Origin: Isoetes taiwanensis
Taxonomy: Eukaryota > Streptophyta > Lycopodiopsida > Isoetales > Isoetaceae
Assembly: GCA_021234155.1 (NCBI GenBank)
Contig: JAJEKV010000038.1
Span: 14,143,559-14,207,558, forward strand
Direction: 5' to 3'
Length of the DNA stretch: 64,000 nt
Shown here: piece by piece, positions 1,028-47,124 of the stretch
Layout of the letters: each line of letters begins with the position of its first letter
Numbering within the stretch: position 1 is the stretch's first letter
Notes under the pieces: model-generated
What the model was told of the DNA's origin: nothing
Databases searched by the model: none
Seen by the model: only the letters and a program-made list of their open reading frames with translations
Translations under genes and position numbers: made by a program

Positions 1028-1395
1028 TATTAGAATTTTGAAGGTTCAGCACATAATGATAGGGCATGAAAGCTTGATTCTGCAATGCAGAGATTGCTAC
1101 AATTCAAGCTGTACATTAGAGTACATAGATGTACATTATATACATTGATGTACATTAGAGTACATTTTAGATACATTGATGTACATTAGACACATTAAAG
1201 TACATCATGTACATCACTGGCCTTTGGCCTTCTGTTTCCGACTATTGGCCCTTCAGTGCCATTTACTCCATGTATTTATAGAATTACACGGAATACACAA
1301 GGGGATTTGCTCCCATTCTATTATGGTTTCTGGTTTGCTTCACTTGATCTTGCAGGTTTGCACCAGTTCATGATAGCTGATACACTTTTCCAACA
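1028..1395 (+). repeat. copia 5' LTR
   Basis: Direct repeat of 5607-5956, ending CCAACA just before the primer site. It starts TATTAGAA where the 3' copy has TGTTAGAA, so the terminal TG is mutated to TA. Both LTRs contain several copies of a GTACATTAGA-like word. Relative to the 3' copy this LTR has small insertions, for example near 1055 and at the 3' end (TCATGATAGC against TCATAGC). Confidence 0.93.
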
Positions 1396-5100: not shown

Positions 5101-5620
5101 TTACTTATGACTCAAAAGATCTGACATTATAGCTTACAGTGATGCTGATTGGGGAGGAGACTTGTCTTGCAGAAAATCCACATCAGGCTATGCAATATTC
5201 CTAGATGGTGGTGTAATTGCTTGGAGAAGCAAGAAACAAAGTGCAATAGCTATGAGCTCAGCAGAAGCTGAATATGCAGCGTCATCCTTGGTGGCAAAAG
5301 AAATATCATGGTTGAGAAGACTACTTGATGAACTAAACTGCCAGCAAACAGGGCCAACTCAAATATTAACAGACAGTCAGAGCTGCATTGCCATTGTAAA
5401 AAATCCTATAGATCATGAACGCACCAAACACATTGAATTAAATATTCATTTCATCAGGGATCTGGCAGCGAAGAAGTATGTACAGATGCAATATGTCAAT
5501 ACAGCCCAGCAGATTGCAGACTTATTCACAAAAGCCTTACAAGAAAGCAAATTTCAGCAATTCAAGGCTGGCTTGAAAGTAGCAGAATTATGTGCTGTAG
5601 GAGGAGTGTTAGAATTTTGA
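2075..5620 (+). pseudogene. copia pol (PR-IN-RT-RH), active site altered
   Basis: One frame is open from 2075 to 4972 (965 codons). In order: two CCHC zinc knuckles (CYNCHQIGHFKNEC and CYTCGGKGHVAAKC, residues 27-62), aspartic protease (VVDSGA, D138), HHCC zinc site and integrase core (HTDLCGP, SPQQNGVAERKNR), then reverse transcriptase (MDVKTAFLNA, VYGLKQSPREWY). The RT catalytic box reads YVDN at 4655-4666 where copia enzymes have YVDD, so the second aspartate is lost. A shift near 4945 moves RT into another frame (LANNTRPDISYV), and another near 5127 returns to the first frame for RNase H (DADWGGDLSCRKSTSGY, SSAEAEYAA). Remains of an active polyprotein; now inactive. Confidence 0.93.
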
Positions 5621-5956
5621 AGGTTCAGCACATAAGGGCATGAAAGCTTGATTCTGCAATGCAGAGATTGCTACAATTCAAGCTGTACATTAGAGTACAT
5701 TATATACATTGATGTACATTAGAGTACATTTTAGATACATTGATGTACATTAGACACATTAAAGTACATCATGTACATCACTGGCATTTGGCCTTCTGTT
5801 TCCGACTATTGGCCCTTCAGTGCCATTTACTCCATGTATTTATAGAATTACATGGAATACACAAGGGGATTTGCTCCCATTCTATTATGGTTTCTGGTTT
5901 GCTTCACTTGATCTTGCAGGTTTGCACCAGTTCATAGCTGATACACTTTTCCAACA
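5607..5956 (+). repeat. copia 3' LTR with preceding polypurine tract
   Basis: Starts TGTTAGAATTTTG directly after the purine run at about 5599-5606 and ends TTTTCCAACA at 5956, followed by the target duplication GCCTT. Retains the normal TG...CA ends. A few nucleotides shorter than the 5' LTR because of indels. Confidence 0.93.
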
Positions 5957-6479: not shown

Positions 6480-7260
6480 TCAATTGTAGTTGCTTTTATC
6501 TTTTGACAATAATGTGACAAAAACAAAAAAACAATGCATGACACCAAAGTGATGAAAATATGACAATAAAATGAGAAAGTATTGACTATGATGGTGTCAG
6601 AAAAGAATAACAAACAAATGATATAAAGTTGACAAAAAAATGACAAAAAGGGGTCAATATATAAAAAATGACAAAACATATGGCAAATAGATGACAACAT
6701 TGTGTCAAAAAAATGAGTTAAAATACGACAAAAAGGTGACTAAAAATTGACAAAAAATGTGACAAAAACCTATCTAAATATGCTAATAGATGACAATAGC
6801 AATGCTTAAAATATGATCAAAAGATGACACAGAATTGTCAAATAAGTGACAAACATGAACTAAAATATGTCAAAATACATGATAAAAGTGCCAAAAGCAA
6901 CTTAAAATATGACAATAGGTTCCAAAAAATTGCCAAAAAAGTGATAAGAAATGATCTATAATATGACAAAATAAGTGCCAAAGAATTGCTAAACAAATGA
7001 TAAGACATCGTCTAAAATATGACACAATATATGATAATAAATTGCCAAAAATTAACCTAAAACAAAATAGGTGTCAAAATTTTTCCCAGAAAAGTGACAA
7101 AAGAATGTTATAAAATATGACAAAATAAGTGTAAAAAATTTGACAAAAAGGCGACAAAAACTGACGATGTATCGTTACTATTTTTTGACATCTTTATGGT
7201 CACATTTTTGTCATTTCTCTGGAATTTGCAGTAGTCTACAAAGTGACAATAACGCTGACA
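6480..7260. repeat. degenerate TGACAAAA-type array
   Basis: For about 780 bp the sequence repeats short words of the form (A)TGACAAAA(A/T), ATATGACAATA, GTGACAAAAA, at irregular spacing of roughly 9-14 bases, with many substitutions. Both exact and decayed units are mixed, so this is an old expanded short-period satellite. No coding is seen. Confidence 0.75.
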
Positions 7261-8119
7261 ATAAACGCATGTTCTCTTGTCTATCTTGGAATGGTCAAGT
7301 GGATGAGTAGAGGGAGGTGTTGTCTTGTTCCATCCTCTAGGGCACCTATATACAATGAAGCAGTAATATCACTATCAAGATATAACATAACAGTATAATG
7401 TGATCTAATAAGGTGGCACTATCCATCCATCACATATCATGGAACAACAACATGCTAACTAGCATACATTGGGCTCCTACCTAAACTTCCTCAATGAGAA
7501 GACTGATCAACGGCTAGGGCCTCCAAACATCAACAAATAGAGTTATGGCACTGGCGTTGGCTGGCGTAGAACATTGGCTAGGATTGACCACTCCATCCAC
7601 CCCCATGCATACGTTGTCGTTCAATGACGCAGGATGGGATCATTTATCCCATCTGGTAGGCATCATGCCAATGGCAGATGACTAGAGGGCGACGATTTCC
7701 GTACTCGACTTATCCGCTGAGATGAGGCATCATCTAGGAGGTGTCGAATTTATATTCTACCCACACGCAGTGTAGACTATTGAACCATCATCCAATTAAA
7801 TTGGGATTATGTCAACTCCAAAATCACGCCAACCTGCTATTGTCTTCTAGGGGGTTTTTGTTTTTTTTAACCTTTTTTTTTGGACTTCAAAAATAACATA
7901 AGGTTGCGATTCACGTGTGACTTTTCATATTCGAATTGAAATATGCAGAAATGAAGAGCAAGTTGCTAACATAGATGAGACCAAAATTGCTTGCTCGATA
8001 GATGATAATATTAGGTTTGATAACAACAGATTGCATTATTTGCGAGGCAATTCCAGACTCGAAATTATCGATACGTGGCACAAATATCATACAAAAATAT
8101 CATATATTCCAATAAAACA
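7261..8119. other. intergenic, no gene recognised
   Basis: Mixed-composition sequence with no family signature in any frame. It lies downstream of the minus-strand methyltransferase/phosphatase relic, whose last recognisable stop is at 8120. Confidence 0.4.
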
Positions 8120-8758
8120 TTAAGGGATCAATCCATGTTTTTCCACGTGTTTAACAAGGTGTGGTTCCATGTCAGCCGTTCTATCCAGTTGTGGGTACGA
8201 ATCTAACACTTCACCCACCGTCTTCCCCATAGCCAAATTATGCATAATAGACACAAACTTCACCAGAAAATCATCTGTCACAAAGTTTTTTGGATCGTAA
8301 GATGGTGGATTCAGGGCCTGCGTTTGATTGTAGAAGCATTTGAGAGCATCATCATCCACTATGATTATATCATCCTTATTCTCGATACCAAGTTCGTCCA
8401 TCATGTTACTCAAGTGTTTGATGAAGATAGGCTTGCTGTTGGATCCTTGGGATTAGTGAACTTCACACATTTGTTTACGATCCCAAAGGGTCAACCAATG
8501 TCTACGCATTTCCCCCAATGCCTCCAAAGTATCCTTGATGTTCCTTAGTTCCATGGATGACCAAATACCAACTCGAAATAACCTGAATGCCTCGTCTAGC
8601 ATCTCCTTCAAGTGCGGCCGCGGATAGATCCACTTGGTGTTTGATTCTCTTGGTGTCTACGATGAAACCGTACTCTAGCCACTTTATTTTTCGGAAAAGT
8701 CTTGCAAAGGACTCCGTTTAGGTCGAACACCACAACCTTCTTAGAAATGCAATGGAAG
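8120..8758 (-). pseudogene. last exon: FCP1/NIF-like HAD phosphatase domain
   Basis: Read on the minus strand, the exon opens after an inferred acceptor (TTTCAG) with KKVVVFDLNGVLC, the position of the HAD nucleophile motif. It continues with WIYPRPHLKEML, RVGIWSS, TLWDRKQMC, KFTNPKDP, KPIFIKHL and IIVDDDALKC, ending at a stop at 8120. This series matches FCP1/NLI-interacting-factor type phosphatases, which remove phosphate from proteins such as the RNA polymerase II tail. The usual DxDxT signature reads DLNGV (8710-8724), so the second acidic residue is absent and catalysis is doubtful. At least three frameshifts or stops (for example near 8695, 8640 and 8455) break it. The last part is open from 8413. 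Confidence 0.68.
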
Positions 8759-8813
8759 CTGAAACATCAAACATGTATCCGGTCAGCAAGATACGATAAC
8801 ACAAACAATACAA

Positions 8814-8947
8814 ACGCGCCAAGCGTGATTTGAAATAGTCATAACCAAATCGCGCTCGGCGTGATTTAGTTTGACAACGAAAAATAATCAAAGCACGCTT
8901 GGCGCGATTTAATTCAAAGGTAATACAAATTAAATTACGCGTGGTGC
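8814..8947. repeat. intronic palindrome array A (4 motifs)
   Basis: Four near-palindromes with ACGC(C/T)NNGGCGTG-like cores lie at about 8814, 8850, 8893 and 8937, inside an inferred intron at 8759-8969 (minus-strand donor GTATGG, acceptor TTTCAG). The motifs are embedded in AT-rich sequence and spaced about 36-44 bp. Same motif as the arrays at 11022-11296 and 12530-12580. Confidence 0.7.
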
Positions 8948-8969
8948 TATTTCGTGGGCAAGGCCATAC

Positions 8970-10979
8970 CTATCATCTTCAGTTTCGCTGCCGTCATCGG
9001 CGTCATTCTCCCCTTCGCCACCCTTAATCTTCGTCTTCTTCTGACTGTTAGAATTGTTATTTTCTATTAGTTCATTGCGTCCTCCTTCTGGCCCGACATT
9101 ATTTTACTATTGATTTGGCAAACTTTGTGAATCACTAGAGCCGCCTTCGTTGCCTTCATTTTCGGTTTTCCCTGTCAATTACTTCATTGTTAACTGTGAA
9201 TCTACTGTTGTTGCATCATCACCCATAATGTGGGCAAAAATATTCCCTAAGTTCGCCGCCATCACAGTACTTTGAGCAGCCAGTTTAGCAGCTATTTGTT
9301 CATTACTGCTTTCCTTATCAGGCTGCAGATTACTAGGTCCCTCACCAGAAGCAACGTCCACTTTCGAATTGGACAAGTCTACGAGACTTTTGATTGCTGA
9401 TGATTTCAGGTTGCCATAAGGGCCTTTAGGAGACTTGGCAAGCACATGCATGAGGAATGGTTCAAGAAAGTCTTTGGCCTGCTCATCACTCACAAAGCAG
9501 TGACATCTTCTTGCACCCATAAGAGCCTCTCGGGCAATATAACCTCCAACATGAAGCTCCAAGCGAGGTTGTATCAATTGGAGCAAATGCCTCGGACGAG
9601 GTAAGCAGCCATAGGCGGGGAAATCCATTTTTATTTAAGGGGCCCTTCTCCTTAGTTTGTAGCTCGTGCTTGATTTCCCCACTTAGGAGGGGTCCGATCC
9701 TCATCCTCTTGACTCATCATCATTTCGGACCGATCCCGATCCGTATGAAAGAATATAGTTCTTAAGTCTGGATCATCTAGAAGAAAACATTCCCATGCAC
9801 TGCTATTGTCACCCTTGGCCTTAGCAATATCATATTCGTCGTCTGATAGCATGGCTATCATAATGAAGATCACATGTGCCATCTTTCGTGCTGTTCGCAG
9901 CTCATTATCCTTAACATCATATACTAGGCATCCCTCCCTAATAACATTGAGGCACTCTAGATCATGAGCAGCGGATAGTGCATGCAGATGTGACTCACCT
10001 GAAGGACAAACGATGACAATAGTGAAGGACCTCTCAGTTGTCAATCCTATACAGCTGGTAAAGAAGCTGCTGTAGTCCTTCTGGTTCATGCCCATATCTC
10101 CTCCCACCCCTGCTGTCCAACACAAAGAGTGATATATTTTTAAGGCCAGAAGTTGATTCTGGCAAGAGACCTTTGTACCCAATGGAGACTGAATACTGGA
10201 CAGCGTCGTCTTCTCCAGTAATCTTCTTCACAAAGGCCACTTTTCTTCTCAACTCAGCCAGTACCTTAGGGGGTAGAGTCTCCTTATGTTTTGTATTTTT
10301 AGCCTTCCAATTCTTTAGGAAGTCCTTTGACCAGAATACAAACTTCTTGATGTCATCATTACTGACCTTGTATTTGTCCAGCAATCCAATTTCAGATAAT
10401 GCCACATCCCCCGATAGCCTTTGTAACTCAGCTCCTACAGCTGACTTCATTGTACGTACATCCTTTACATGGCTGCAGCACTCAACGAAGGACATCCTAT
10501 CCTTGGTGAAAGCACCCTTCTTGTATAAGACTTCCTTCTTTAAGCATTGGTCTAAAACCCAAATGGTCTCAGCGTCGTCTAGCCCCTGAGTCTTTCTCAT
10601 CTCTGTCACATTCAAGTCAAATATGCTTACATCAACAGGAGGCACCCTACCTATAGTGTCTGGCAGCTTCCCTTGTGCATAAGCGTCCCAGAATTCATTC
10701 CACTTGAGCCATCTTTGCCTCCTTACAAAACACAATCTTATACGAGTCTGTTGGTCGACTCTTTGGATGAGCTTTCGGAAAAGGATCTGCAATGTCATCA
10801 CCACCTTTTTTTCTTTGATCTTCTTGCGGTCTTCTTCTTCTCTGTATAATTATGCGGCGACAGAGTCCGCTCCGGCGCAGCTTGAATGCCTCGGACTTTG
10901 ACCCATACATGCGGTGGGCAATGGGCAGCCATATTCCACCCATTGTTGGTGGCGTGGGCGCAGTTGTTCAACGTATGGA
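8970..10979 (-). pseudogene. DNA methyltransferase-like exon (N4/N6 class beta), decayed
   Basis: Minus-strand coding is spread over several frames. Open parts are 10943-10695, 10804-10034, 10182-9652 and 9628-9179. The order is an N-terminal region with DSYKIVFCKEAKMA and NEFWDAYAQGKLP; then GLKNISLFVLDSRGG at about 10117, where a DPPY motif would be expected; MGMNQKDYSSFF; SFTIVIVCPSG; NDNSS/WECF; FAPIDTT; and ELHVGGYIAREALMGARRCH near 9550, resembling the AdoMet-binding motif. Catalytic box before the AdoMet motif is the beta-class order of N6-adenine/N4-cytosine methyltransferases. An acidic tail (GGEGENDADDGSETEDD) leads to the donor at 8969. Frameshifts, stops at about 9090-9095, and DSRG for DPPY argue it is dead. 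The family call rests on motif order and remembered similarity, not a search. Confidence 0.5.
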
Positions 10980-11021
10980 CTGCAATAGTACAGACATTGA
11001 ATCAGTATCATAGAATAGAAA

Positions 11022-11296
11022 CACGCCGGGCGCGATTTGAATAGAATTGATCAAGAGAAAAATCACGCCTGGCGTGAAATGAATAAAGTTACTAATGCAA
11101 TCCACGCCAGGCATGCTTTAAAATCAAATCAATTCCACGCCCGGTGTTTTCAAATCAACAATTCACGCTGGCGTGTTTGGTTGATTTTGAAAACACGCTG
11201 GCGTGAATTGAATTTTGGAATTGGTTTGATTTGAAAACACGCCTGGCGTGAATACAATTTATGAAACCAGGTAGATTTGAAAACACGCCTGGCGTG
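11022..11296. repeat. intronic palindrome array B (8 motifs)
   Basis: Eight motifs, CACGCCGGGCGCG, CACGCCTGGCGTG (three exact copies), CACGCCAGGCATG, CACGCCCGGTGTT and CACGCTGGCGTG (twice), sit at about 11022, 11064, 11103, 11136, 11164, 11194, 11238 and 11284, spaced 28-46 bp. Flanks are also shared (TTGAAAACACGCCTGGCGTGAAT). The array fills an inferred minus-strand intron, 10980-11333 (donor GTAACT, acceptor TTGCAG), between coding blocks. Confidence 0.8.
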
Positions 11297-11333
11297 AATA
11301 TTAAAATGCATTGGAATAGATGCAGTTAGTTAC

Positions 11334-12527
11334 CTTTTGTATAGAAATGTCTTCCCCATTTCATTCAAAGTTGCGCTAATCTCAAACCAAATCTGCGGTG
11401 AAGTATTGGCATCCAAGATCGACACCTCCTATACGCATAGTGATTGTAGAACGCGTTTTGGCCACATTTTGTTACTTTTGCCGATGAGGGCCTTACATTG
11501 CCTCAACGAGAATCTTTTGCCCCGTCGATGAATTTAATTTAATATTTTCATTTAACATTAACTCACGGAAGTTCGTCCCACACGGCGGGCTTGTTTGAGA
11601 TCATATCCCAAGGTAACACATCCATTTGGCATAGGCATTTGACTGGATTACTAATCATGCTCGAACAATCTCCATGGCATGTCTTTGGATCATATCTTCT
11701 CGCTAACATAAATGGAGCTTGGTGAGCGGATGAGGGACTTCACATGGATCGCATAAAAGTTTCCTTAAGACCCAATGGATAATGGTCGAGTATTTATTCG
11801 ACTTATTCATCGCCTCTCTAGCTGCGCCACTCTGTCTGTTCATTCTCAAAAGCGAAGCCTCCATGCCAGCCGACAAGCTGCCGGGGTTGAACATCCTTCC
11901 CTAGATCTAGGACCCTCTTAGAAGCTTTCAAGTCGGCTAATTCCCCTTGCTGCGCAAATAGTGACTTGGTGTCGGTTTAGTGAACATGCCTCTATGCATT
12001 TGTAACCCCTTGGCAAATAGATATTGGCGTAAGCGCTACATTGGTTGGCCAACCATACTTAAAACATGTCTCACCATTCACATCTGTCTTCATGAGCGTA
12101 TCCTTGTATGCGGTAGCTCTACGGTGAGTAAGTCCGAAAGCGGATCTTTTCTTACCATACGTGTAATCTCCAAGAGCAATTTGCGGTTGGTGTCATCCTC
12201 TTCCTCACAAGAGATTAGGATCCCTTGTTTGGCCATCTTATGCGCTTCCTTTTTTCCTCGAGAAGAGAGTTAAGTCGAGCTTGCCATTTGTCTTGGCAAG
12301 GTCAGCGTACCCTTTCGGCACCCCTCGTCCATTTCCTCTTCTGTGGGGGTCGGTGGTTGCTATAAGAATCGGCCCTTCATCATCTAAGGTGAGATCATAT
12401 GGTGCGCATCCGGGTTAAATGCCCTTGCTTTCTTGGCGGGATTAGAACCCGAATTATTAGGGGTTTTCTTCCTCTTGAGCCTTTGCAAAAGAAGATGAGC
12501 ACTTTTAGAGTACTTTTCGAACAAGAG
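11334..12527 (-). pseudogene. upstream exons of the same decayed gene
   Basis: Short stretches of coding-like sequence in changing frames continue upstream of the methyltransferase part. At 11334-11420 the frame reads SPQIWFEISATLNEMGKTF and ends at a donor. At about 11567-11700 it reads PVKCLCQMDVLPWDMISNK. At 11703-12300 there are KDVQPRQLVGWHGGFAF and KLLLEITRMVRKDPLSDLL. At 12300-12527 there are LLLQRLKRKKTPNNSG, with a possible nuclear localisation signal, and YDLTLDDEGPILIATTD. I recognise no family here. Joining these blocks into one gene is inference from strand, order and splice signals. Confidence 0.4.
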
Positions 12528-12529
12528 AT

Positions 12530-12580
12530 CACGCTTGGCGTGCATTTAAACCTAAATTAGTACAAATCACGCTTGGCGTG
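12530..12580. repeat. intronic palindrome pair C
   Basis: Two exact copies of CACGCTTGGCGTG at 12530-12542 and 12568-12580. They lie in an inferred minus-strand intron whose donor (GTATGTAG) is at about 12658 and whose acceptor is near 12527. A third, broken motif may be present at 12600-12612 (CCATGCTATCGTG). Confidence 0.7.
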
Positions 12581-12658
12581 TTGGTAGCTCCTATTATTGA
12601 CCATGCTATCGTGAATTTGAAACTAAATTATTTTGCATCCACATTTTAAGCTACATAC

Positions 12659-13245
12659 CCTTCATGAATCCATATTTCACACTATTTATCCTCATTGAAC
12701 ATTGCTATCTCCAAGCTGTCTAACACCGCTATATTCTATATATAAAAGCAGAGCAAAATTATGTTTCTATCGATGTTAATACTTAAAATTCATGCAAAGC
12801 ATAATAACTCAAACTCATGCAAAGCATATTAAGTGAAAGGAAATATCTCAAATTCATGCAAGCATAATACTCTCCCCGCGACGGTGTGTATACGTGGCAA
12901 ATTAAATACCTTGAATAGGGTTACGTATTCTGTGGTATTACGATCAACGTCCCTCGAAGCTTGAGAAGTCTTGGGGTTTTAGGATTCCTCTTCCACGCTT
13001 CCTTCCCGCCCGTCGCCTCGACCTCGATTCGTTTTAGAAGCATCTCGGAGTCGCCTAGTAAGCAGTCGGAAGGTCGCTCGGATCTGGCCTTTCGAGCTGC
13101 TTTCGAGAAATAGGCGGCAAGAAATAGCTTTTTCTACATGCGAGAAAAGAGAAATTTGAATTTCAAGAAAACACAAAATCTGGTTTGAAATATTCTTGAC
13201 ACATACAAATAATAATGGCGAAGACCCGATCATGACTTCTTTCAT
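12659..13245 (-). pseudogene. further 5' exons, unrecognised
   Basis: A small exon at about 12659-12735 reads VLDSLEIAMFNEDK followed by a stop, then CEIWIHE and a donor. Upstream, 12910-13245 is coding-like: an 88-codon frame from 13245 (with FRLLTRRLRDASKTNRGRG), then SQASRDVDRNTTEYVTLFK ending at a GTATTT donor at 12909. I do not recognise the product. Between 12780 and 12870 the intron has three copies of a TCAAATTCATGCAAAGCATA-like word. Confidence 0.35.
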
Positions 13246-13821
13246 TAAGTTTTTAAAACCAATCTATCCAAAAAGTATCATAAATTTATCCCGCCTAAGC
13301 GTAGTTAACCTAATCTTTCTTCTAATTGAATTTTTCCGACCGCCGGAGTTTCCATAAGCGCCCGACTTCTCAAATCGACGGAGACTCAAATCAGCTTCTC
13401 AAGAATGGCTCTGAATTCGGTACTCATCTCATTCCAATAGCTTGAACATTAATTTCCAATAGTAGGTGTCACGAATAGCAATTTTCTAGGTGTCGAAGAT
13501 GAATGTTTCATGTCAACTACAAATCGGAAAAGGAAAGTAGGATTATGCAAGATCGACTCCATCGATCCATTGTAATCATCATGGAATTCCGCTCGGGGAT
13601 AAGTATGTCCGAGGAGTTACGGTGATTAATCGCTACGCTATGGATGAAGCTTTACCTCGCATGAGACACCGGTGGGGGATACGGTTGGAGAAAGTGTTGG
13701 AACATTTGTTGCATGGCCAAGAAACCGCTTAAAAAGGTATGTAACATGTATTACATTGTAGAAATATAGAAGTAGACAAAATTTGTTGTATTCATTGGAA
13801 AAAGATTACAATTGTATATAA

Positions 13822-14224
13822 TCACGGATAAACTGGATAAACCGGACAAAATTCGGACCTCTTTGTTTCAAGCCCGGTCTCTTGAGTAGCTGGGCTATCG
13901 ATCTCCATTTCCATTGCGCGGGGCATAGTGAATTCTTCCGGTAAAACCCGGCCAAAAACACCGGGCTCTAGCTCCACCCCCCCCCTTTGCTCCACCTCCA
14001 CCTCCTGCTCCCGCTCTGCTCCTTTGCTCCATTGGTTGAACCTCCAATGCATCATTATAGCGCTGCGGTAGTGGTTCCATTGGTTGAGCCATCTCCATTG
14101 CATCATTATCACTGTTGTGGTAGTGGTTCGTGTTGGGGCATCGGGCATAGAGGCTAACCACTAAAGAAACTTGACTCCTCATTTTGAATCTCGAGCCGAC
14201 GGATCGAGATTCACTCTCGATCAA
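13822..14224 (-). pseudogene. unrecognised minus-strand coding relic
   Basis: Two overlapping frames look coding in different parts: 14224-13895 (PNTNHYHNSDNDAMEMAQPM) and then 14148-13822 (EQEVEVEQRGGVELEPGVFG, ending PVYPVYP at a stop). The switch falls near the G-rich run around 13980, so one frameshift would join them. A GATGCAATGGAG / CAACCAATGGA unit is partly duplicated inside. No domain is recognised. It has the same strand as the methyltransferase-like gene and could be part of it. Confidence 0.3.
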
Positions 14225-14689
14225 TGCATGTCTTGCATTCGAAGTGATTAGATAAGAGGGCCAGCCTCCGATGCGATTGCAAGGGCCCCGAGCCCGGATC
14301 TATCATTGCTCAAGGCTCTGCTTGCCATCATCATTACTTGATCCAAGTACTCCGGGGGTTGCAAGGCGGTGCTCCGGCGGGGCGGTGCTTTCGGTGCCGG
14401 TTCAACCGGATTTGGAGATTGGAACCAAACTGGAGCGGGAACGTGTGTGATTGCTGGCCCAAATGTAATTCCAATGCATCTTCGTCACCAACGAGGGTGA
14501 TTAATGTAACTTGGTATCTATCAATAGGAAGTGAGCGAAGTATCGGTATTCACTTTGGCGTGTTATATTTATTTATTTATAAACTTAGAAACTAAGAGAC
14601 ACCGGGCGTGTTTAAGCGTAAAAGTTGAAAGTAGGGATACAATTGTTTGCACGCTCGGCGTGTAAACCGCTATATAGGAAAAACTATAC

Positions 14690-14845
14690 GCGCGTGCATT
14701 CGTGAGAGGAAAAAAAAAGCATCTGAGATAGATAAGTATAGATAAAGGCCAGGCAATTATTAAGCGTGTAAATAATTGCCTGGCCTTTATCTATTTACTT
14801 ATCTATCTGTCTTTTTTTCTCCCCTAACTGAAAGTGCACGCCGGC
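14690..14845. repeat. long hairpin / foldback element
   Basis: Arms AGATAGATAAG(T..)ATAGATAAAGG CCAGGCAATTATT at about 14726-14761 and their reverse complement at 14771-14808 flank a 9-base loop. Symmetry continues outward, with mismatches, through the A-run/T-run and GCGCGTGC / GCACGCCGGCGC to about 14690 and 14845. Copies of the CACGC..GGCGTG motif lie at the outer ends (14650, 14836, 14882). It could be a MITE-like foldback or the source of a structured RNA. Confidence 0.75.
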
Positions 14846-15429
14846 GCAGTATTCATGTTGAAGGCTAAGGTTAGCATAAAACACGCTTAGCGTATTTCAA
14901 ATATTATCTTTCAGATTTTTCTTTTGCTTTCTACTACACTTATTCATAATAGAAACTTGCATGCAATAGCATGATTAATTCAGGAAGAGAAACTCAAGAA
15001 TTTACTCGAAACAAAAAGAAGCAGATGAAGTTTATAAAAAACTATTCTGGTTTTCATAAACATCAATCGCTTCCCTCGCCTCGAGCAAATGCAAAAGCTT
15101 GTCTTCTTGGATTAAACCTGCCATTGAGATGCAACTTAAAACTAAATGAAAACTAACCTTGAGTCCTGAGGCTGGAAGGATTCGAAGAACGGAGGACTAT
15201 GCTTGTCGTTTTAATTCTGAGGCTTTTCGATTCGCAGACCTTAGTCCTCTGCTACAGATGCTACAGAACTAAAAGGCGGAGTCTTTTAGTAAGTTAGGAA
15301 TTGCCGAAACCAAACATCTAACATTCTTTGAATATAAACCTGCTCACCAAGATTTCAGGAGGGCGGATCCAAACAATGTGGTAGCATAACCGCAAATCAT
15401 TATGAAGGAAGGAAGAAAATGTAGGAACT

Positions 15430-15520
15430 TTGAGAGCGTAAAATGGATTTATATAGGCATAATTAGAAATAAGTTGGCGTGAATAATTGATTGCTTGAAT
15501 TAACACGCTTTGGCGTCACG
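15430..15520. repeat. dispersed module with TATA-like box and palindrome, copy 1
   Basis: Shares with 16678-16765 the series GAGAGCGT, TTTATATAGG, TAATTAG, AGCGTG/GGCGTGAATAATT, ATTGC, TAACACGC. The two halves GGCGTGAATAATT and GAATTAACACGC are inverted repeats of each other. On the minus strand it reads as palindrome, about 50 bp, then CCTATATAAA, which has the form of a TATA box. Confidence 0.55.
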
Positions 15521-16219
15521 GTCTTCCCTTGGACATGACATGTATATGGTATATATGGAGAATATTGCATTTCATGCAATAAATTCTCACGGCATTTTAT
15601 TCCATTTATTGCATTCGAAAAAATAGAATTTAGAAATTTTATATAGGCTAACTTAAAAATGATTTTAAAGGCAAAGTTATCAAGGCTAAAAAATGACTTG
15701 TAAGGTTGGGGAATTGTTTTAGGTCGTATAGGAAAATTTCCTATGGTTACTGTGATGCATCAGAGATTTCTAATGTGGTTGATTTATAGTGTTCCGAGAG
15801 ACTTTGTTGAGACAAAGTTTGCGCAGATACAAAATTTTAGAGAGACAAAATTTTAGACAAAATTTTAGAAAAACGACTTGGAGCCAAAATAATTGGAGAA
15901 TACAGTTTGATTTTATTCAAAAAATTTTATGTCTGTAAAAAAACTGTTTGAAGAAAACCGTTTGAAGACAAAGTTTATGAAGAAAACCTGTTTGATTTCA
16001 TTAAAAACAGGTTGTATGTACAGATGCCCAAAGGCTTGGAAAGGTTGCTTCAAGGCTTTTCACACAATTTAAAAAGGGCGTGTGCGGGAGGCGTGTCCAA
16101 AACTTCGTAAGAATGGAAACAAAAAATGGGCGCCCGGGATACGCATCACTCTTCTTCCACACTTTGCAACAAAGAAGAAAGAAAGGTGTTAGAAAAGAAA
16201 GAGTGCAAAAAAAAAAAAA

Positions 16220-16646
16220 AAAAAAGAAATCACATGCAAACCCGGGTTCATCTCTCAACCACTCCAAAAACCGGTCGAATTGTCGACCTTCTTCCCAATC
16301 CTCCTCCTCCTCCTCCTCCTCCTCCTCCTCCTCCTCCTCAGAAATTCATTCTCTTTTCGTGGTCAAGCCAACCCCAGGCAGGCGGTCATGTGCTCTTGGG
16401 AGGACATCTCCTCCTCTTCCTCCAACTCCTCCTCTTCCTCCTCTTGAGTCGAGGAGGAATCGGAGGAGCTCAACTCCTCCTCTTCCATTTCGAAATCAGA
16501 ATCATCCTCCTCGAATCGGAATCGAGAGGAGAATTGGGCAAGAAAATCTAGGGAGGGGAGGGGGGGGAAGAGGGGCTCTTCAACCCGATGTCTCTTTGAC
16601 GAGACCTCGGGTTCTTCATGAAGTTCGAAAGGCTGAGGCGCTTCAT
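16220..16646 (-). pseudogene. acidic low-complexity protein, frameshifted at C-run
   Basis: The ATG at 16646 (minus) opens MKRLSLSNFMKNPRSRQRDI and stops after 34 codons just past a run of eight C. In the next frame, coding-like sequence continues: RFRFEEDDSDFEMEEEELSS, then an acidic glutamate/serine tract, then past the (GGA)n run EEGRQFDRFLEWLRDEPGFA. One extra C would join the first two blocks, so this is either a decayed gene or a homopolymer sequencing error. Function unknown. The plus-strand frame at 16080-16718 is its low-complexity mirror. Confidence 0.4.
16303..16338. repeat. (CCT)n microsatellite
   Basis: Twelve or so CCT units. On the minus strand they encode part of a glutamate tract. 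An 18-19 base A-run lies just upstream at about 16208-16226. Confidence 0.9.
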
Positions 16647-16677
16647 GGCGGCGTAAAAAAAAAATTGGGACAGAATG

Positions 16678-16765
16678 GTCTTGAGAGCGTGAACCGGTTT
16701 TTATATAGGGTTAATTAGCTCTTAGCGTGAATAATTTATTGCCTCAAATAACACGCCAGCGCATT
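16678..16765. promoter_or_regulatory. dispersed module copy 2, possible minus-strand promoter
   Basis: Homologous to 15430-15520. On the minus strand a GCGCTGGCGTG palindrome is followed by CCTATATAAAAACC and, about 60 bp on, by an ATG in a good context (GCCGCCATGAAG, ATG at 16646). This fits a core promoter for the acidic ORF below. No direct evidence of transcription exists here. Confidence 0.35.
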
Positions 16766-17339
16766 TGAAATTCCATGACTGACTATATTATCTAGGGTAT
16801 ATTATTATGGATAATAAATTCTCCGCCTATTAGTTATATGTCTTTTTCAGTAATCATATATCCAAATTTTCGATAATTAAAATTTGGATATATTTATATA
16901 AATGTCATTTCCTTGTTGTTGCCATGAAAATTCTTGTTTTAAATGATTTCGTTTACGCCCATTGTTATTATTATATTAAACCTATTTCCAAGGAATTTCT
17001 TGCTTTTAAAAAAATTTGATTTACCTCTACATATTCCATAAATGTACGTACTTTTTTTATCTTATGGTGTAATAATTTTTTCTTACTCATTGACTAAAAA
17101 GGGTGCAATTTGCCTAGGTCAATGGTGCCTCTCCAACTCAAGATGGTGTGCAACATATTGAAAAGAGCAATATCAATGAAAAACCAACTCCTAGAAAGAA
17201 TGTTGAAGAAAAACAATGAGTCCTCTATAGTAGGGTGCAATGGAGGAACAAGAAGGTGAGAATCATGCACAAGTGCAACAAGGAAATAGTAGGCCAAGGA
17301 GTCATTGTGCTAGCAGATCCCGGTCAAGCCATTTGTTAA

Positions 17340-20027
17340 TGATGAAAGGCTAGGGGAAGACAATATTGGTATTGCAATTTCGATGTTGGAAGACAACTGG
17401 AAAGGTAAAGGTTTGGGTGACAAGGAATGTTTTGGTTGTGTCAAGCAATTGGAGGTTCCTTGCATCATGGCATGGCCTATAAGTAGTGTTCAATTTGTGG
17501 AGGATTATATTTTTCCAGAGCCTGAGGTTGTTGGGGACAATGATTGTCTTGATATTGATCCATTGGCAGTTGGAACTCTAAACCTAGGCAAAAGGGGAGA
17601 AGTATCAGTTGCCAGACATTATCCTAGCAAAAGAGCCAAGTTGATTAGTGACACCAAACGTGAGACAATGGTGAAGGTTAGGGGCTCAGATTGTTGTTGG
17701 AGTGATTGTATGCAATTCTTCACAATAGAACAATTGGTGGAAGCAAGAGCCACTTTTCAAGAGTACATTGTTGATGAGAGGAGGACCTACATGTACACAA
17801 TCTTCGAGCATGCACTTCAAGATGAAAGAAACCCAAACAGAGAAAAAAGATACCCTTTGCTAGGCAAATGGATATGTGCAAAAAGCATGGCGAGTATCCA
17901 TGCAATTCCAACTTCTTCATGGCATAATTGGCAAAAAAAAAGCAGCAGAGGGGAACAGGATTGCTTTTACATGGAAATAATGGTTTGTTGAGACCAACAG
18001 CTAGGACCTTGGTGCTGAGGGAGATATTTGAAAAATATATTGATTTCAATGCGAGTCTATGCCACACAAAAGCGAAGGGATGAAAAGGGAAGAGCAGGTT
18101 GTTGAGAAAAGGTTGTCATCACATTGTACTCAAAAGAGTATTTTGGAAGAAGTGAATTCCCTACTCGAGAATTGGGAATTCTTCCAATATCCCAACCTAG
18201 CTTTAGTAGGTTATGGAAGAAGCATTTCAATCATGTCACCATAGCAACTTCAAACAACTTTGCAAAGTGCAATTTATGTGCTAAGTTGAAGGAGACTCTT
18301 GATAAGACCTGTGCAACCTAGTCAAAGGGCTAGGATAAGGGAGCATATGAAGGACCATATGGTGACCAACTATCATGTAGATCATGTTATTGGATGTGGA
18401 GGACTTTATCCGCATTGGAACCCAATAACTATTTATGTATTATACATGACAAGATGGACCAGCAAAAGACTTGTCTTCCACAATTCAAGTACATACCAAA
18501 GTCATGTGGAAGATCATACCCTTCTGAGATCTCCATGATTGGGGCAATCTTGCATGGGCGTAATCAAACCTACTATGGCCATTTTAGTTTGAAGTTGTGG
18601 AGTGATGGTCCGCATTTTCATATTGGGAGTATCATGAGGTGTTTGAGAAACTATGAAAATGGATACAATGGTCACCTCAGGGACATTACAGCCTAGCCGG
18701 GCACTACATAGAGCATTGTTAGATGGAAACCCTAACAATATTGAAAAGTTCAGCAAGGCAAGGTTTAGGAAGCATGGGTCTAATGAACATGTTGGAGCTT
18801 CAACTTCATCGTGCTAAACCTCAAGATCTACCCAAAAGGTTTCTCTTGCAACTTGATAATTGTCTTTGGCCAAAATAAGAACAGTGGATGTTTTCTTTCC
18901 TATCCTACTTAATTGGTTGTGGGGATATTTGAAAGAGTTAATTTAGGGTTTCTTATGCCGGGCATACCCATGAGGATGTGGATGCATTATTTGGCAAATA
19001 TAGTTGTATCTTGAAGCAAAGAAACAAGGACCAACTTTCCTAGGCTAATGGAAATCTTGCATGAATGCACTACTCCAAACCCTATAGCTTCTCTCATAGA
19101 AGAAGTGCCCGATTGGAAGAGCTTTGTGGATGGTTATACATTGGATCTTGAAGGTCATTTCGGGCCTCTGCAGTTCACTTTTTGGGTGAGAGATGGGATT
19201 CCAATCTTCCAATGGAAGATGAGACCTTCGTGAGGATGAGTGGAGAGGAGGGGAGGAAATATGGCGTAGAGATGAGAATGGCAAGCCTATGATACCTCTA
19301 GGTCAACCAAAAGCTTTAAAACCCTCAAGAAGTGAAGCAATTGGGATTGACTAAGGAAGGAATCCAAGACTATATAAAGCATTGGCAAACCAATCCGGAT
19401 GACACCAACCGTGCCTTGGTGGCTTCTTTGGAAGAAGGTGATTAACTTTGTTGGGGAGATAGACACATCCTCGGATGAATTGAAAGAAGGGTGGTTGCCT
19501 AAAACTAGGTGGAAGACCTTAGCAGTCTTTGAGGATTTTGATGACACTGTAAGTAGCATTCGCAAGCAATATGCTCCTCCTCCTTCTGACAAACACTATG
19601 TTGGTCCTAAGAACAATAGGCCAAAGTTTCTAGGCATGGATGCTTATGAACCTTCCACTGACTTGGAATGCCACCAATTTGTGGTAGTAAAGCCATCAGA
19701 TTTAGATACATATCCGGTGTGGTTGGGGTTCACTATCTCGATATTTGCAAAGAAGAAGGTAATATTAACTTCAACCATGTAATGGGGTGGAATGGTGGTG
19801 TCCAAGGCATCGGGTTGACCAACGTATTGGATAAAGAAAGGTACTCGATTGTTGGACAAAGAAATGGAGGAGAAACCGAAAGTGATCCCGATCTTTGGCT
19901 AGACTATGAAAGTGTTTTGTACTCATGGACTCCAAACACTATTCCAGCTAGAAATGCGAGAATTACAATACCTCAGGATGTCAGGAAGAAGGCTATGATA
20001 TCATTGGGGGTGCTTGAAGAAAGTTGA
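17340..20027 (+). pseudogene. DUF7869-type gene, transposase-like, decayed
   Basis: Plus-strand coding in several frames over 2.7 kb. Blocks: 17383-17991 (202 codons); SFSRLWKKHFNHVTIATSNN with CNLCAKL; RIREHMKDHMV; LCIIHDKMDQQKT; LLQLDNCLWPK; AGHTHEDVDALFGKYS at about 18958-19008; 19399-19782 (127 codons); and a C-terminal block to 20027 with GWNGGVQGIGL, WLDYESVLYSW and ITIPQDVRKKAM. LQLDNC followed by GHTHEDIDALF is the hallmark of DUF7869-type proteins, a multicopy family that resembles transposases. Multiple frameshifts and stops mean no full protein can be made. Family identity is from the motif; activity as a transposase is inference. Confidence 0.6.
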
Positions 20028-21090
20028 ATAACTATGTAAATTTTTGTTATCACGTTTTTATGATATGGTGCTATATTGTGAAATATTGACTATTTTGTAA
20101 ATAACATGATATTACGTTTTCATAATTTTGAGGTGAAATGTGTGAATTTGAATATGCTACTAAAAACATGCAATATGAAATTTGTCCCAAAATTAAGACA
20201 TAAACCCAATTTAATTGAATGATGGTTATTGGGTCTAGCTTGCCAAGGTCCTGCAATAGGCTCTATAAACCAAGGGTCAACTGTTGGCATACAAGTCCCA
20301 TCTTGTACACCCACGTTGAACCTCATTGCCCACGACCAAACGGGCTCCTAAACAGACTGCATATAATTAAGAATTATTGGACCTAAGATAGAAGCATCAT
20401 CTACAATGGCTATCGGCTCACCCTCTTTTCTTTGTACACAAGAGATGCAAACAATGATCAACCATCATATAACATCCACAAGTCGAAGGATAACATAAGC
20501 AGTTGCAACTAACTTACAATTAGTGTTCATTGGTTATAGTTCTTGAACTAGAACTGAGGGTTCTTAGGTTTTGGAATAGCTCTATTAAAAGTACAACATG
20601 TTAACCTATCTAGAATGCTAACTTCTAAATCAGCTACGTACTTATCTACACCAAATACCTGCTCCTTGGCTACTGCCGCCAAATGTTGGTGTCTCCATGG
20701 CTTGCAAGGTGCTTGGTGTGATAAGCTCCTCTCTAAGGCACGTGTGCTGGCTGCGAGGCTCGAGGCTATACAATCGAAGATGATCCTTCATTTCGAGCTC
20801 TGGGATGCAGTCGGGATTGGCTGACAAAGAGGTGCAAAAATGGACCCAGACTAGAGTTTAGGTCTAGTTATATGCTATGGTTCCATGCTACTAGTTCACG
20901 TGGCAAATGATATGACTCCACGTGGCACCAATGCGATGACTCACCACAACAAGGTGCCAATGGGGCGAGTTCACGTGGCCAACGGAGACTTCCTTGCCCA
21001 AAAGTGGATGCCTTATTCTACCATACCATCGACAACCTTAAACATAATCTAATATTACCAAGTTCAACAAACGATATTCATAAAGAGGTT
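20028..21090. other. intergenic, triple CACGTGG motif
   Basis: No gene recognised. Three CACGTGG (G-box) words occur at about 20897, 20919 and 20971 in partly repeated context (GTTCACGTGGCAAATG, CTCCACGTGGCACCAATG, GTTCACGTGGCCAACG), suggesting a small tandem unit. G-boxes bind bZIP and bHLH factors, but no gene start is evident beside them. Confidence 0.4.
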
Positions 21091-24088: not shown

Positions 24089-27000
24089 ATGGCTCCCAAT
24101 GAGTTGCAGCGGCCTCAACCTGGTAGTCATCCTAAAGATGGTGACCCACAACCAGAATTGGGCTCTTTCGATAACCCTTTGCGAGATCTACAATCTCCTG
24201 CTCGTTTGTCCAGCCCTCAAACTAATGGTGATGCTGTTGATATGGATGAGCCCACCAAGTATCAGGTCTTCGTGCCTGAGGTGAATGAATTACGCGCCCA
24301 AATCAGGAATGTTTGAAGTAACGAGGATAGCATTAATTGCTTTATGTAGTAGAGTTAATTCTGGTAGATCTTATGGTTGATTATATTGCAGAAGAGAGGG
24401 TGGAAGAAATTTCTTGCTTTTATGGGTCCTGGGTTCTTGGTCTGCATTGCCTACATAGATCCAGGCAACTGTAAGTCGTTTTTCACATTATTTGAACGTT
24501 GAGTGAATGTTTTAAGATTCGGGTTTTGGTATATGGACAGTTGAGAGTGACCTGCAATCTGGTGCAGAACATCGATATGAGGTGAGCTAAAGGTTTTTTT
24601 GGCTAGAACGCGATTTCAATTTGAAAGGTTTTGGAAAAAACTGAAGGTTTTCTTTCATTTGTGCGCCCTTGTGGCAATGCAGTTATTGTGGATTATTCTT
24701 ATCGCATCCATTGCAGCCCTATTTATGCAATCTCTTGCAGCGAATTTGGGGGTTGTGACGGGTGAGTCCTTAAAGTTTGTATATTTGTACCCCTATAATT
24801 TGAATGCAGTCTATTGGTGAGAAAGCAAATCTTTCTTATAACACACATGAGTTGACAATGCATAGGGAAACACCTAGCAGAGCATTGCAGGACAGAATAT
24901 CCAAGCAGGATTAACGTTATACTTTGGGTTTTTGCGGAGTTTGCAGTTATTGCTGCTGATATTCCAGAAGGTATGTAACATGCAATGTAAAAGGTTCTGT
25001 TTTTGAGAATTTTATTTTATAGTCAGTTTAGCAGAATAAGTGTGCAATGGTTTCTTTCAGTGATCGGGACTGCATTTGCTCTCAATATTCTGTTTAGGAT
25101 TCCAGTGTGGGCTGGTGTTTTAATCACAGCATGTAGCACCTTTGTCCTCCTTGCGGTGCAGCAATATGGGGTAATGCTAAGTAAGATGTGATAAGTATCT
25201 CTTGAATGGCATTCTGACCAGTTTATAATGGCAGGTTCGAAAGCTAGAATTTATTGTAGGAGGTCTTGTGTTCACCATGGCCGCTTGCTTCCTTGTTGAG
25301 TTAGGATATGCCAAGCCAGATCCTGTGGAAGTTATGAAGGGCCTGTTTATTCCTAGATTAAATGGAAGTGGTTCAACTGCATTGGCCATCTCTTTGCTTG
25401 GTGCAATGGTTATGCCGTACGGATTTAACCCTTCTATAATTTGGAGTATAGGGTCAAACTCCAAATAAAGAATACTCAATTCTTGGATAATGGCTCGGAT
25501 GCAGGCACAACCTATTCCTTCACTCAGCACTAGTTTTAACAAGAAACATATCACGGTCTAACAGTGGAATAAAGGTATATATTTCGACCAAGGTATATAT
25601 GTTTGGACACTTTTGTATCAATGATACTTTTGTCCTTGCAAGATGTATGGACAGAAGCTGGCCTCTATGCTGTTGACCTCTATTGCCTTCATACATTGCT
25701 CAACTAGTTAGTAGCAGTGATGGTCTGACTCTAAGCTTGCAGTGTTATTTTTAAGTAGGGTAAACTTTATAAATTCAGCATGGCCTGCAAGTTGTCATGA
25801 TTTGTTGCCAATGTTTTCTCTACTGCTACTGCAATTGTTGATCAAACTTTGGCTTTGGCATATGTGGAACAGGATGGTTGCAGATACTACTTTCTGGAGA
25901 GTGCAACGTCATTGTTCGTGGCTTTTCTGATCAATGTGTCTGTTATTTCTGTGAGCGGAGCAGTTTGTAGCAATGGGAACCTATCTGATGAAGACAGAAA
26001 AGCGTGTGAAGACTTAGACTTGAATCACGCTTCATTTTTATTGCGGGTAAGTTCTTTGTAGTCTTTCTACTGGAAAATAGCCTATCCATATGAAGGGAAG
26101 ATATACAGATGGGAAAAGAACCTCTTTAGTAAAAGGAAAATGGACATATGGGGATACAGTAAAGCATAATGACAGAAAGTCCCATTTTTCATTATTTTCC
26201 AGTTGTTTAAGTGTGTGCCTGCCATATGGGTACATTTCATATTGTTATGGTGAAGAGTAAAGTACCTCTCTAACAGTAGCAGTCCAGGAAGAGGGGCGCA
26301 CCAGCTTGTATGGCTGTGCTAGGGTATGTAGTATACTCATCTGGCTTGAACAAAGATGCCCTATGAGTGCTAGATTTATAGGGTCTATTCCTTTGCCAGA
26401 CTTAGGAGTCTCAGTGGATTTGGGGCCCTGCTTATTTGGAAGGGTGGAGGTGAATGATGCTAATCTGGACAGCCTCATTCTGCAGGTCTTCTCATTTCAT
26501 TAGCATTTTGGGTGCAGAGTTGTCTTTTTTGTCAGTTAAAACTATTGACCATTCTCATCTTACTTTTTGTGATACATATTCTTTTGAAGAAGCAGACTTT
26601 CCAGCATGACTTAAACGAATCCATCAAGTCAATGTCTCCGCACCTAATATGTCTCCTGACCTGTTATATGTTCACATTCATTTGGTATATGCGGAAACAA
26701 ATAAACATCATAATTGGATACTTAGGAAATTGGAAGTAATATTTTCGTTCATTATATTCCCTGATTTAATAGCCACCACTTCTTACTCCCTTTCTTCTTT
26801 ATAACCCTCATAATAGTTCATAAGACAAAATCCGCTTGCTGGCATTTCATAAAAGATGGGAAAGAAGACCCTTTTTGGTAGATAGATTTTAGATGTTAGA
26901 AATCAATAATATCACTGGCAGTAGAGAAAGACAAGATGGACATTATGAACCTTTTGAGGGTAGTCCTTGGATATAGTGTACATAGATGATAGTAATCATC

Positions 27001-44406: not shown

Positions 44407-45136
44407 TGATACAAACAGTCTTCTCTATCTGCAAATCTATCTGCAAAACTAACAAACATAGTTAATTCAATCAACCTGGAACTCCAGGTCAAGCTCTTCT
44501 GGCACTACTTATCCACCCAACCGGGCTCTGATTTGCAAACACGGCAAGTCCGGCTCAATCTCTTCCCAACTCTGAGAGTCTGCTAACCAACTGGATAGCC
44601 TCTCTGAGATTTACAGGAATTCTCTAGAGCTAAGGGAACCACTCTATTCAACCACAAATTAAAAGAGGATCTACAACAGTCAGTCTTCTATCTTACACCA
44701 ATCACCTCCGGCTTCCTCAATTCAACAGATCGAAGGCTTTTATGCTCTTCTAAAAGGTATTTGCAAGCTAAATCGGGCTTTCCCTTACCTTTTCGCTGGA
44801 GCCGGAGCCCTTTTTCCTGCAATCCGGCCTGCTACAATGGCCTATGAGCTAATTCGGGGCACTTCCGACCCTTTTTAGCAAAAAGTTAACTAGTTCGGCA
44901 ATTCTATCTGCCGCTGATCGTTACAACTGTAGCGACCGTTTTGTTTGTATTAACACTTAGCTTATTAATTATTTCAACGGTTAAGATTTCAATAGCCCTT
45001 TCCTTAAGTTAAATATAACCTTTAAGACTTCTATCAATCAAACAAGATTACAAGATATCTATCTAAAGCCCTTGCCTCTGTGTTTGTCTCTACAAATCAT
45101 TCCTCTGAGCCACGCCCCCAAGCTAGTGCCGTATCA
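44407..45136 (-). repeat. 3' LTR of the non-autonomous element
   Basis: 730 bp. Differs from the other LTR by an 11-bp duplication (ATCTATCTGCA) near 44436, an extra CAACAGTCAG near 44672 and a few point changes. Confidence 0.93.
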
Positions 45137-45184
45137 ATTCCTTCCCTTCCCAAGGTTGATCGTCCTCGATCATCTGCCTTAGGG

Positions 45185-47119: not shown

Positions 47120-47124
47120 AGATC

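What the first reader, a model, noticed from the sequence alone, without database searches (positions are those of the whole stretch)
8120..10979. DNA methyltransferase and FCP1-like phosphatase joined in one gene
Methyltransferase-like coding ends in an acidic tail at a GTATGG donor (8969), and HAD coding begins at a TTTCAG acceptor (8758). The phase fits across the 211-bp intron (the split codon reads through to KKVVVFDLNGV). I know no characterised protein that joins a beta-class N4/N6 DNA methyltransferase to an FCP1/NIF-type phosphatase. Such a protein could link DNA marking to RNA polymerase II tail control. Both catalytic boxes are altered (DSRG, DLNGV), so this copy is dead, but intact relatives may exist.
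Basis: partly seen in the sequence, partly recalled or inferred. Interest (0 to 1): 0.8.

Follow-up and report, generated by a model that had tools for sequence, protein, structure and literature searches.

The report
Transposon gene fusing methyltransferase-like and phosphatase
The odd gene is the broken passenger gene of a jumping DNA element with many relatives in a plant genome, probably a quillwort's, and it joins a methyltransferase-like protein that has lost its active site to a domain related to the phosphatases that act on RNA polymerase II.

Summary
The finding is real but is not a host gene. Window 7783-20227 is a 12.4-kb DNA transposon with inverted terminal repeats and a 4-bp target duplication. 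Exon 1 has a weak ParB-like signal, exon 2 a linker and a methyltransferase-like region, exon 3 an FCP1/NIF domain (6e-15 in an open copy). The first look gave thousands of rough candidate copies. Divergence between subfamilies shows purifying selection on all three exons. None of 7 open exon 2 copies holds either methyltransferase box, so that domain looks like a pseudoenzyme. The same genome holds a sister transposon with intact PF01555 methyltransferase exons and no NIF match in the five stretches read. Each family carries its own palindromes, mostly in introns and upstream. ParB-methyltransferase passengers are already described in algal transposons; I found no report of the NIF fusion or the palindromes in ten paper searches of an open-access library. 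I propose that the protein recognises its own element and brings a phosphatase or phospho-reader to it. Function is untested.

The parts
7783..20227 (.). whole DNA transposon, 12,445 bp
   Evidence: terminal inverted repeats and 4-bp target duplication; relatives stop at the same terminal sequence
7783..7804 (+). left terminal inverted repeat AACCATCATCCAATTAAATTGG
20206..20227 (+). right terminal inverted repeat, 21 of 22 complementary to the left one
7779..7782 (+). target duplication ATTG (CAAT on -), left copy
20228..20231 (+). target duplication ATTG, right copy
17314..20024 (+). remains of the transposase gene, frames broken
   Evidence: ORFs; open relatives carry DUF7869 PF25273 at 3e-37 to 3e-36
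12500..16650 (-). degenerate 5' part of the passenger gene (approximate); relatives have acidic and coiled-coil-like open frames here (my reading)
   Evidence: DNA alignment with C923, C1045, C1097; ORFs
11334..12480 (-). exon 1 (start approximate): ParB/DGQHR-like region, broken frame
   Evidence: 76% DNA identity to L006 over a stretch that spans exons 1 and 2; in open relatives DndB 0.061 and PHROG ParB 0.11 (L006), PHROG ParB 0.0018 (L017)
10980..11333 (-). intron 1, phase 2, six palindromes
8970..10979 (-). exon 2: linker and methyltransferase-like region, frame broken
9415..10198 (-). methyltransferase-like region within exon 2 (approximate)
   Evidence: profile comparison; purifying selection in relatives
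8759..8969 (-). intron 2, phase 2, three palindromes
8120..8758 (-). exon 3: FCP1/NIF-like domain, frame broken
   Evidence: PF03031
8815..8906 (.). palindromes YRCGCY(N)RGCGYR at 8815, 8851, 8894
11022..11296 (.). palindromes at 11022, 11064, 11164, 11194, 11238, 11284
12530..12580 (.). palindromes at 12530 and 12568, upstream of exon 1
14650..16764 (.). further palindromes at 14650, 14837, 14882, 16752

Best explanation
It is a decayed copy of a TIR transposon that carries, divergently from a DUF7869-type transposase, a passenger gene for one protein: N-terminal acidic and coiled-coil-like parts, a ParB/DGQHR-like region, a linker, a methyltransferase-like region without its catalytic boxes, and an FCP1/NIF domain. 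Shown by sequence: the transposon, the divergent layout, conserved splice phase, an excess of silent over replacement change between subfamilies in all three exons, absence of both methyltransferase boxes in the open copies, and a sister transposon in the same genome with an intact methyltransferase in the matching place. Inferred: the line descends from a ParB-methyltransferase passenger gene, lost methylation and gained the NIF domain. Proposed mechanism (inferred): the ParB-like and dead methyltransferase parts recognise the element's own palindromes, which lie in introns and upstream of exon 1, and hold the NIF domain there, where it dephosphorylates or merely binds a phosphoprotein such as the RNA polymerase II tail. 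That would change transcription or silencing of the element.
For: TIRs and 4-bp duplications: of 7 copies tried both ends could be read in 3, and those 3 each have a perfect 4-bp duplication, CAAT, ACTG, ACTA. DUF7869 in 3 open transposase frames, 3e-37 to 3e-36. 17 of 18 exon 1/transposase pairs within 12 kb are divergent (capped lists). NIF 6.2e-15. Exon 3 joins exon 2 in phase 2 in both subfamilies; in 5 of 6 open exon 3 frames no ATG precedes the first NIF motif. Exon 3 follows exon 2 in 9 of 11 stretches compared. dN/dS against the C976 copy is 0.23-0.31 (exon 1, 3 pairs) and 0.23-0.27 (exon 2, 3 pairs); between subfamilies A and B pS is 0.74-0.95 and pN 0.25-0.38 in exons 1-3. Methyltransferase region: hhalign score 27.8 against a null of 14.0 +/- 2.5, 0 of 200 shuffles, aligned at motif I; phage enzymes only 1 of 120. 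Linker against sister linker 4 of 150. Sister family: PF01555 4e-18 and 2e-17, DUF7869 3e-52. Palindromes: 15 of 15 window sites inside the element, 0 in exons 1-3; genome-wide 1841/1946 on the two strands against 13/8 for the reversed pattern; sister palindrome 5772 per strand against 0.
Against: No transcript or protein data. No PF01555 hit in exon 2 (none in NCBIfam either), and the PDB gave only a defensin at 7.7 by profile. Whole-length comparison with the sister family found no significant match; the ParB parts of the two families do not match each other (56 of 150 shuffles as good). Against the sister methyltransferase alone 8 of 120 shuffles did as well, and that alignment starts nine residues past the sister's DLPYGF box, so it does not confirm which stretch is the catalytic slot. 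The best ParB hit is 0.0018 and the others are weaker. Exon 3 within subfamily A has dN/dS 0.55-1.31, other close pairs 0.41-0.96, as in decaying copies. One open exon 3 frame (L016) has an in-frame ATG in the intron sequence. The D-x-N motif may mean no phosphatase activity. Binding of the palindromes is a guess from their position.
Confidence: 0.6

Rival explanations
1. The two exons belong to two adjacent genes that sit side by side by chance or are read separately; no joined protein exists.
For: Exon 2 runs into a stop within about a dozen codons after the donor, so an unspliced product would end there; one of 6 open exon 3 frames has an in-frame ATG upstream; no transcript was available.
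Against: 5 of 6 open exon 3 frames have no ATG before the first NIF motif; GT-AG and phase 2 are kept in subfamilies A and B, whose silent sites are near saturation; exon 3 follows exon 2 in 9 of 11 stretches.
Confidence: 0.1
2. The exon 2 domain is not a methyltransferase relative but another alpha/beta domain whose motif spacing only looks similar.
For: No Pfam or convincing PDB profile hit; signal only over about 60 columns, in a region trimmed after the whole-length test failed; weaker against the sister family alone, 8 of 120, and there not at the catalytic box.
Against: 0 of 200 shuffles reach the score and the alignment falls on motif I; 1 of 120 against phage enzymes alone and 60 of 120 for the transposase control; the sister gene has an intact methyltransferase in that place.
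Confidence: 0.23
3. A transposon that once captured a host NIF gene fragment and carries it as inert cargo (Pack-type), with no function for the element.
For: NIF matches occur at many other places in the genome; exon 3 pairs within subfamily A have dN/dS 0.55-1.31.
Against: Exon 3 has pN 0.25-0.33 with pS 0.79-0.95 between the subfamilies; the exon is shared by two old subfamilies with the same splice phase.
Confidence: 0.12
4. The NIF domain is an active phosphatase that strips RNA polymerase II tail phosphates near the element.
For: PF03031 match over nearly the whole domain; the first Asp of the motif is kept (DLNGVL in 10 of 10 distinct places).
Against: The second Asp of the motif is Asn in 10 of 10; recalled from general knowledge of HAD enzymes, this residue is the general acid/base.
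Confidence: 0.25

Closest known systems
Sola1-1_Ec32 passenger protein of Ectocarpus (PMC12477816, passages seen)
   Same: ParB-like plus N4/N6-type DNA methyltransferase protein, transcribed on the strand opposite to the transposase
   Different: Here the methyltransferase boxes are missing, a NIF domain is added, the host genome matches a lycophyte assembly in size, and palindromes are described; the passages seen mention none of these
Sister transposon of the same genome (L068-L071)
   Same: DUF7869 transposase (tested in L071), divergent gene with ParB-like motif and methyltransferase, palindromes mostly outside coding stretches
   Different: Methyltransferase boxes intact (DLPY or DIPY, FSGSG), no NIF match in the stretches read, different palindrome (AAGTGTATTCCGGAATACACTT)
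ParB-methylase Bce_0392 of Bacillus cereus (described in PMC5512222, passage seen)
   Same: ParB domain fused to an adenine methylase
   Different: bacterial; no NIF domain mentioned
FCP1/SCP-type NIF phosphatases (PF03031)
   Same: domain match 6.2e-15; weak phmmer match to UBLCP1, 0.0056
   Different: DLNGVL in place of the usual D-x-D motif (motif recalled), fused in a transposon protein

Membership tests
TIR DNA transposon with 4-bp target duplication (Sola-like) | terminal inverted repeats | tested here: met
   21 of 22 bp
TIR DNA transposon with 4-bp target duplication (Sola-like) | 4-bp target duplication | tested here: met
   3 of 3 copies with both ends read, of 7 tried; 4-bp duplications of Sola2 stated in PMC3627910 (passages)
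TIR DNA transposon with 4-bp target duplication (Sola-like) | Sola-type transposase | not testable with these tools
   DUF7869 found, but no Sola reference sequence was at hand
ParB-methyltransferase transposon passenger | on the strand opposite to the transposase | tested here: met
   17 of 18 pairs within 12 kb divergent
ParB-methyltransferase transposon passenger | ParB-like domain | tested here: inconclusive
   PHROG ParB 0.0018 in L017, 0.11 in L006, DndB 0.061 in L006; no match to the sister ParB part
N4/N6 DNA methyltransferase (PF01555) | Pfam match | tested here: not met
   no hit in exon 2
N4/N6 DNA methyltransferase (PF01555) | catalytic DPPY-type box and FxGxG box | tested here: not met
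   0 of 7 open exon 2 copies; 5 of 5 sister sequences hold both
N4/N6 DNA methyltransferase (PF01555) | profile similarity at motif I | tested here: met
   0 of 200 shuffles; 1 of 120 against phage enzymes only, but 8 of 120 against the sister only, with another alignment
NIF/FCP1 phosphatase (PF03031) | Pfam match above gathering score | tested here: met
   55.7 bits against 21.8 in L009
NIF/FCP1 phosphatase (PF03031) | D-x-D motif I | tested here: not met
   DLN in 10 of 10 distinct places; motif rule recalled

The most novel reading that the evidence does not exclude
Plant transposons evolved their own parS-like addressing system: each family encodes a ParB-like passenger protein and carries a matching palindrome array in the introns and 5' part of that protein's gene. 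In one family the addressed protein writes methyl marks; in the window's family the writer died and was replaced by a phosphatase or phospho-reader that acts on transcription of the element.
Probability: 0.3. Interest if true: 0.85.

Novelty: new variant of a known kind. Interest (0 to 1): 0.62.

Why it matters
In the passages I saw, transposon passenger proteins that might mark their own DNA are predicted genes in algae. Here one plant genome holds both a family with an intact writer and a family whose writer has lost its boxes and is joined to a phosphatase-type domain, each with its own palindromes. That gives a natural comparison to test how a transposon recognises itself and whether it acts on host transcription directly.

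Tried and rejected
Host gene family: rejected by TIRs, target duplications and copy number. Element end at ATGGGG (taken from C1018): rejected, 23 of 23 fetched copies, and C1034b, share sequence upstream of it. Long profile comparison with the sister family: no signal; only trimmed regions, chosen afterwards, gave one. PDB profiles gave only a defensin at 7.7 and nothing. A viral-contig scan for relatives of the sister methyltransferase gave no confirmed relative. PADLOC gave one weak hit, PD-T4-4_A at 0.025 in L017 exon 1.

Papers: ten searches, 44, 45, 48, 52, 57, 87, 88, 89, 99, 100. Passages seen of PMC12477816, PMC8566536, PMC3627910, PMC5512222; of the rest only listings. Of the two sources that PMC12477816 cites for algal ParB-methyltransferase transposons, one is not held and the other was not looked up.

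Confidence in the main reading was lowered from 0.62 to 0.60 and that of the non-methyltransferase rival raised from 0.20 to 0.23 because the sister-only alignment does not lie on the catalytic box.

Full report
Observation. Intron 2 is 8969-8759, 211 bp. The window copy is broken into several frames.

Copies. The exon 2 piece gave 143 listed matches in the window's own genome, from 4565 candidates of which 142 were scored; the NIF exon 150 from 6638; exon 1 116 from 5842; a transposase piece 150 from 8230. The candidate counts are rough and the lists are capped. The genome has 1,658,258,908 bases in 1110 sequences; the Isoetes taiwanensis assembly has 1658.30 Mb in 204 scaffolds and 909 contigs (PMC8566536, passages). 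I infer that this is the organism; nothing names it.

Element. DNA comparison of eleven stretches showed similarity running far beyond the gene. The 3' end is sharp: 17 fetched ends and three others stop at the same GATGGTT with unrelated DNA beyond (the 17 come from 40 listed matches to that very end, of 683 candidates, so the shared end was selected for but the differing flanks were not). Six subfamily A copies end at the same motif or within a few bases of it. The same 22 bases recur inverted at 20206-20227 (21 of 22). I tried to read both ends in seven copies: the window, C976, C1034b, C908, C1043, C974, C1019. Both ends were found in three, and each of these has a perfect 4-bp duplication: CAAT, ACTG, ACTA. 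Three open frames of the transposase gene carry DUF7869 (PF25273, 3e-37 to 3e-36); the residues around QLDNCAGQNKN and GHTHEDVD look like a transposase core (my reading). Of 114 exon 1 loci and 150 transposase loci on the capped lists, 18 pairs (17 exon 1 loci) lie within 12 kb and 17 of the pairs are divergent; the other 97 exon 1 loci had no listed transposase that near.

Coding evidence. Against the C976 copy dN/dS is 0.23-0.27 (exon 2, three pairs) and 0.23-0.31 (exon 1, three pairs). Between subfamilies A and B pS is 0.74-0.95 and pN 0.25-0.38 in exons 1-3, too saturated for a ratio but with a large excess of silent change. The methyltransferase-like region alone gives 0.19-0.26 for C976, and 0.10-0.11 in the three A-B pairs that are not saturated. 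Exon 3 pairs within A give 0.55-1.31, and other close pairs 0.41-0.96, as for copies in decay; C976 was not in the exon 3 set. So the protein, including the altered methyltransferase-like region, was kept by selection over long times. GT-AG and phase 2 of intron 2 are the same in A and B (with the frames). In 5 of 6 open exon 3 frames no ATG precedes the first NIF motif; in L016 one does, inside the intron sequence. Exon 3 follows exon 2 in 9 of the 11 stretches (not in C1061 and C1097).

Domains. NIF: 6.2e-15 in L009; motif DLNGVL in 10 of 10 distinct places (11 rows with the window twice). A phmmer search of the PDB with L009 gave UBLCP1 at 0.0056 and chloramphenicol acetyltransferases from 0.0088, the latter probably chance. 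Methyltransferase-like: no Pfam hit in exon 2. A profile of seven copies (four after hhalign's filter) against sister plus phage N4/N6 enzymes gives score 27.8, nominal E 0.0028, over 60 columns at motif I; none of 200 column-shuffled profiles reached it (mean 14.0, s.d. 2.5; reversed profile 15.7). This trimmed test was set up after the whole-length test had failed. Against phage enzymes alone 1 of 120 shuffles did as well; against the sister alone 8 of 120, with an alignment that starts nine residues past the sister's DLPYGF box; against the transposase as a control 60 of 120. So motif I is moderately supported, while the reading of LDSRG as the DPPY slot rests on my alignment by eye of LFVLDSRG with LVVADLPYG. 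Whatever the slot, 0 of 7 open exon 2 copies hold a DPPY-type or FxGxG box and 5 of 5 sister sequences hold both. ParB-like: PHROG ParB 0.0018 in L017 and 0.11 in L006, Pfam DndB 0.061 in L006; in L006 the two weak hits cover the same stretch, around DGQHS. The sister's N-terminal exon gives PHROG ParB at 0.018. The two ParB-like parts do not match each other (56 of 150 shuffles as good), while the linkers do weakly (4 of 150).

Sister family. PF01555 gives 150 listed matches in this genome, all over the cut-off, from 1444 candidates. I fetched five loci. Single exons of two of them give PF01555 at 2e-17 and 4e-18, and the transposase beside one gives DUF7869 at 3e-52. The layout is divergent in L068, L069 and L071, and L070 shows transposase-like C-terminal pieces on the opposite strand. 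In L072 the transposase nearby is of the window's kind and convergent, probably another element. A profile of the window family's NIF exon finds nothing in the five sister stretches (best E 2.6), while it finds L018 and L016, and also L079 (1.6e-18) and L080 (1.8e-14) of another NIF family. None of the five stretches was read to a defined element end.

Palindromes. In the window, 15 of 15 matches to YRCGCY(N)RGCGYR lie inside the element (19 percent of the window), none in exons 1-3; nine are in introns 1 and 2 and six upstream. Half-sites are 2.98 per kb inside and 0.25 outside. Genome-wide the extended form has 1841 forward and 1946 reverse matches (mostly the same places read twice, I assume) against 13 and 8 for the pattern read backwards. 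The five sister loci hold 42 copies of another palindrome, 4 of them inside stretches that I had marked as coding (the marks are approximate); the rest lie in introns and upstream. It has 5772 matches per strand in the genome against 0. Two families, two palindromes, similar positions: this is the basis of the self-recognition idea. No binding was tested.

Known work. [quoted passage not shown] So the class is known. I found no paper joining such a protein to NIF/FCP1 or describing such palindromes (search 99), judging from the listings. Most subscription papers are not held there.

Verdict. It is a transposon passenger whose methyltransferase-like domain has lost its boxes as a family and was kept, joined to an NIF domain with an altered motif.

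Noticed in passing
L068-L071: Sister transposon family with an intact ParB-like plus PF01555 methyltransferase gene and its own 22-bp palindrome array.
   Followed up: partly
L079:7437-8483, L080:6539-7807: Another NIF family seen at two places (motif DVNGVL or DINGVL, also D-x-N), each beside a Cys-rich ORF and an opposite-strand ORF that looks transposase-like to me; NIF may have been recruited by mobile elements more than once.
   Followed up: partly
L007 and L009: Tandem arrays of parts of the passenger gene: in L007 units about 99 percent alike, in L009 about 2.5-kb units in which exon 3 abuts exon 2 of the next unit.
   Followed up: no
window 6500-7170: Degenerate array of TGACAAAAA-like units next to the element.
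   Followed up: no
window 44407-45137 and 46415-47120: 731-bp direct repeat, 95 percent identical; possible terminal repeats of another element.
   Followed up: no
window 1030-1395 and 5609-5956: 366-bp direct repeat, 94.5 percent identical.
   Followed up: no
window 25229-25465: ORF that resembles a metal transporter of the NRAMP type (my reading, not searched).
   Followed up: no
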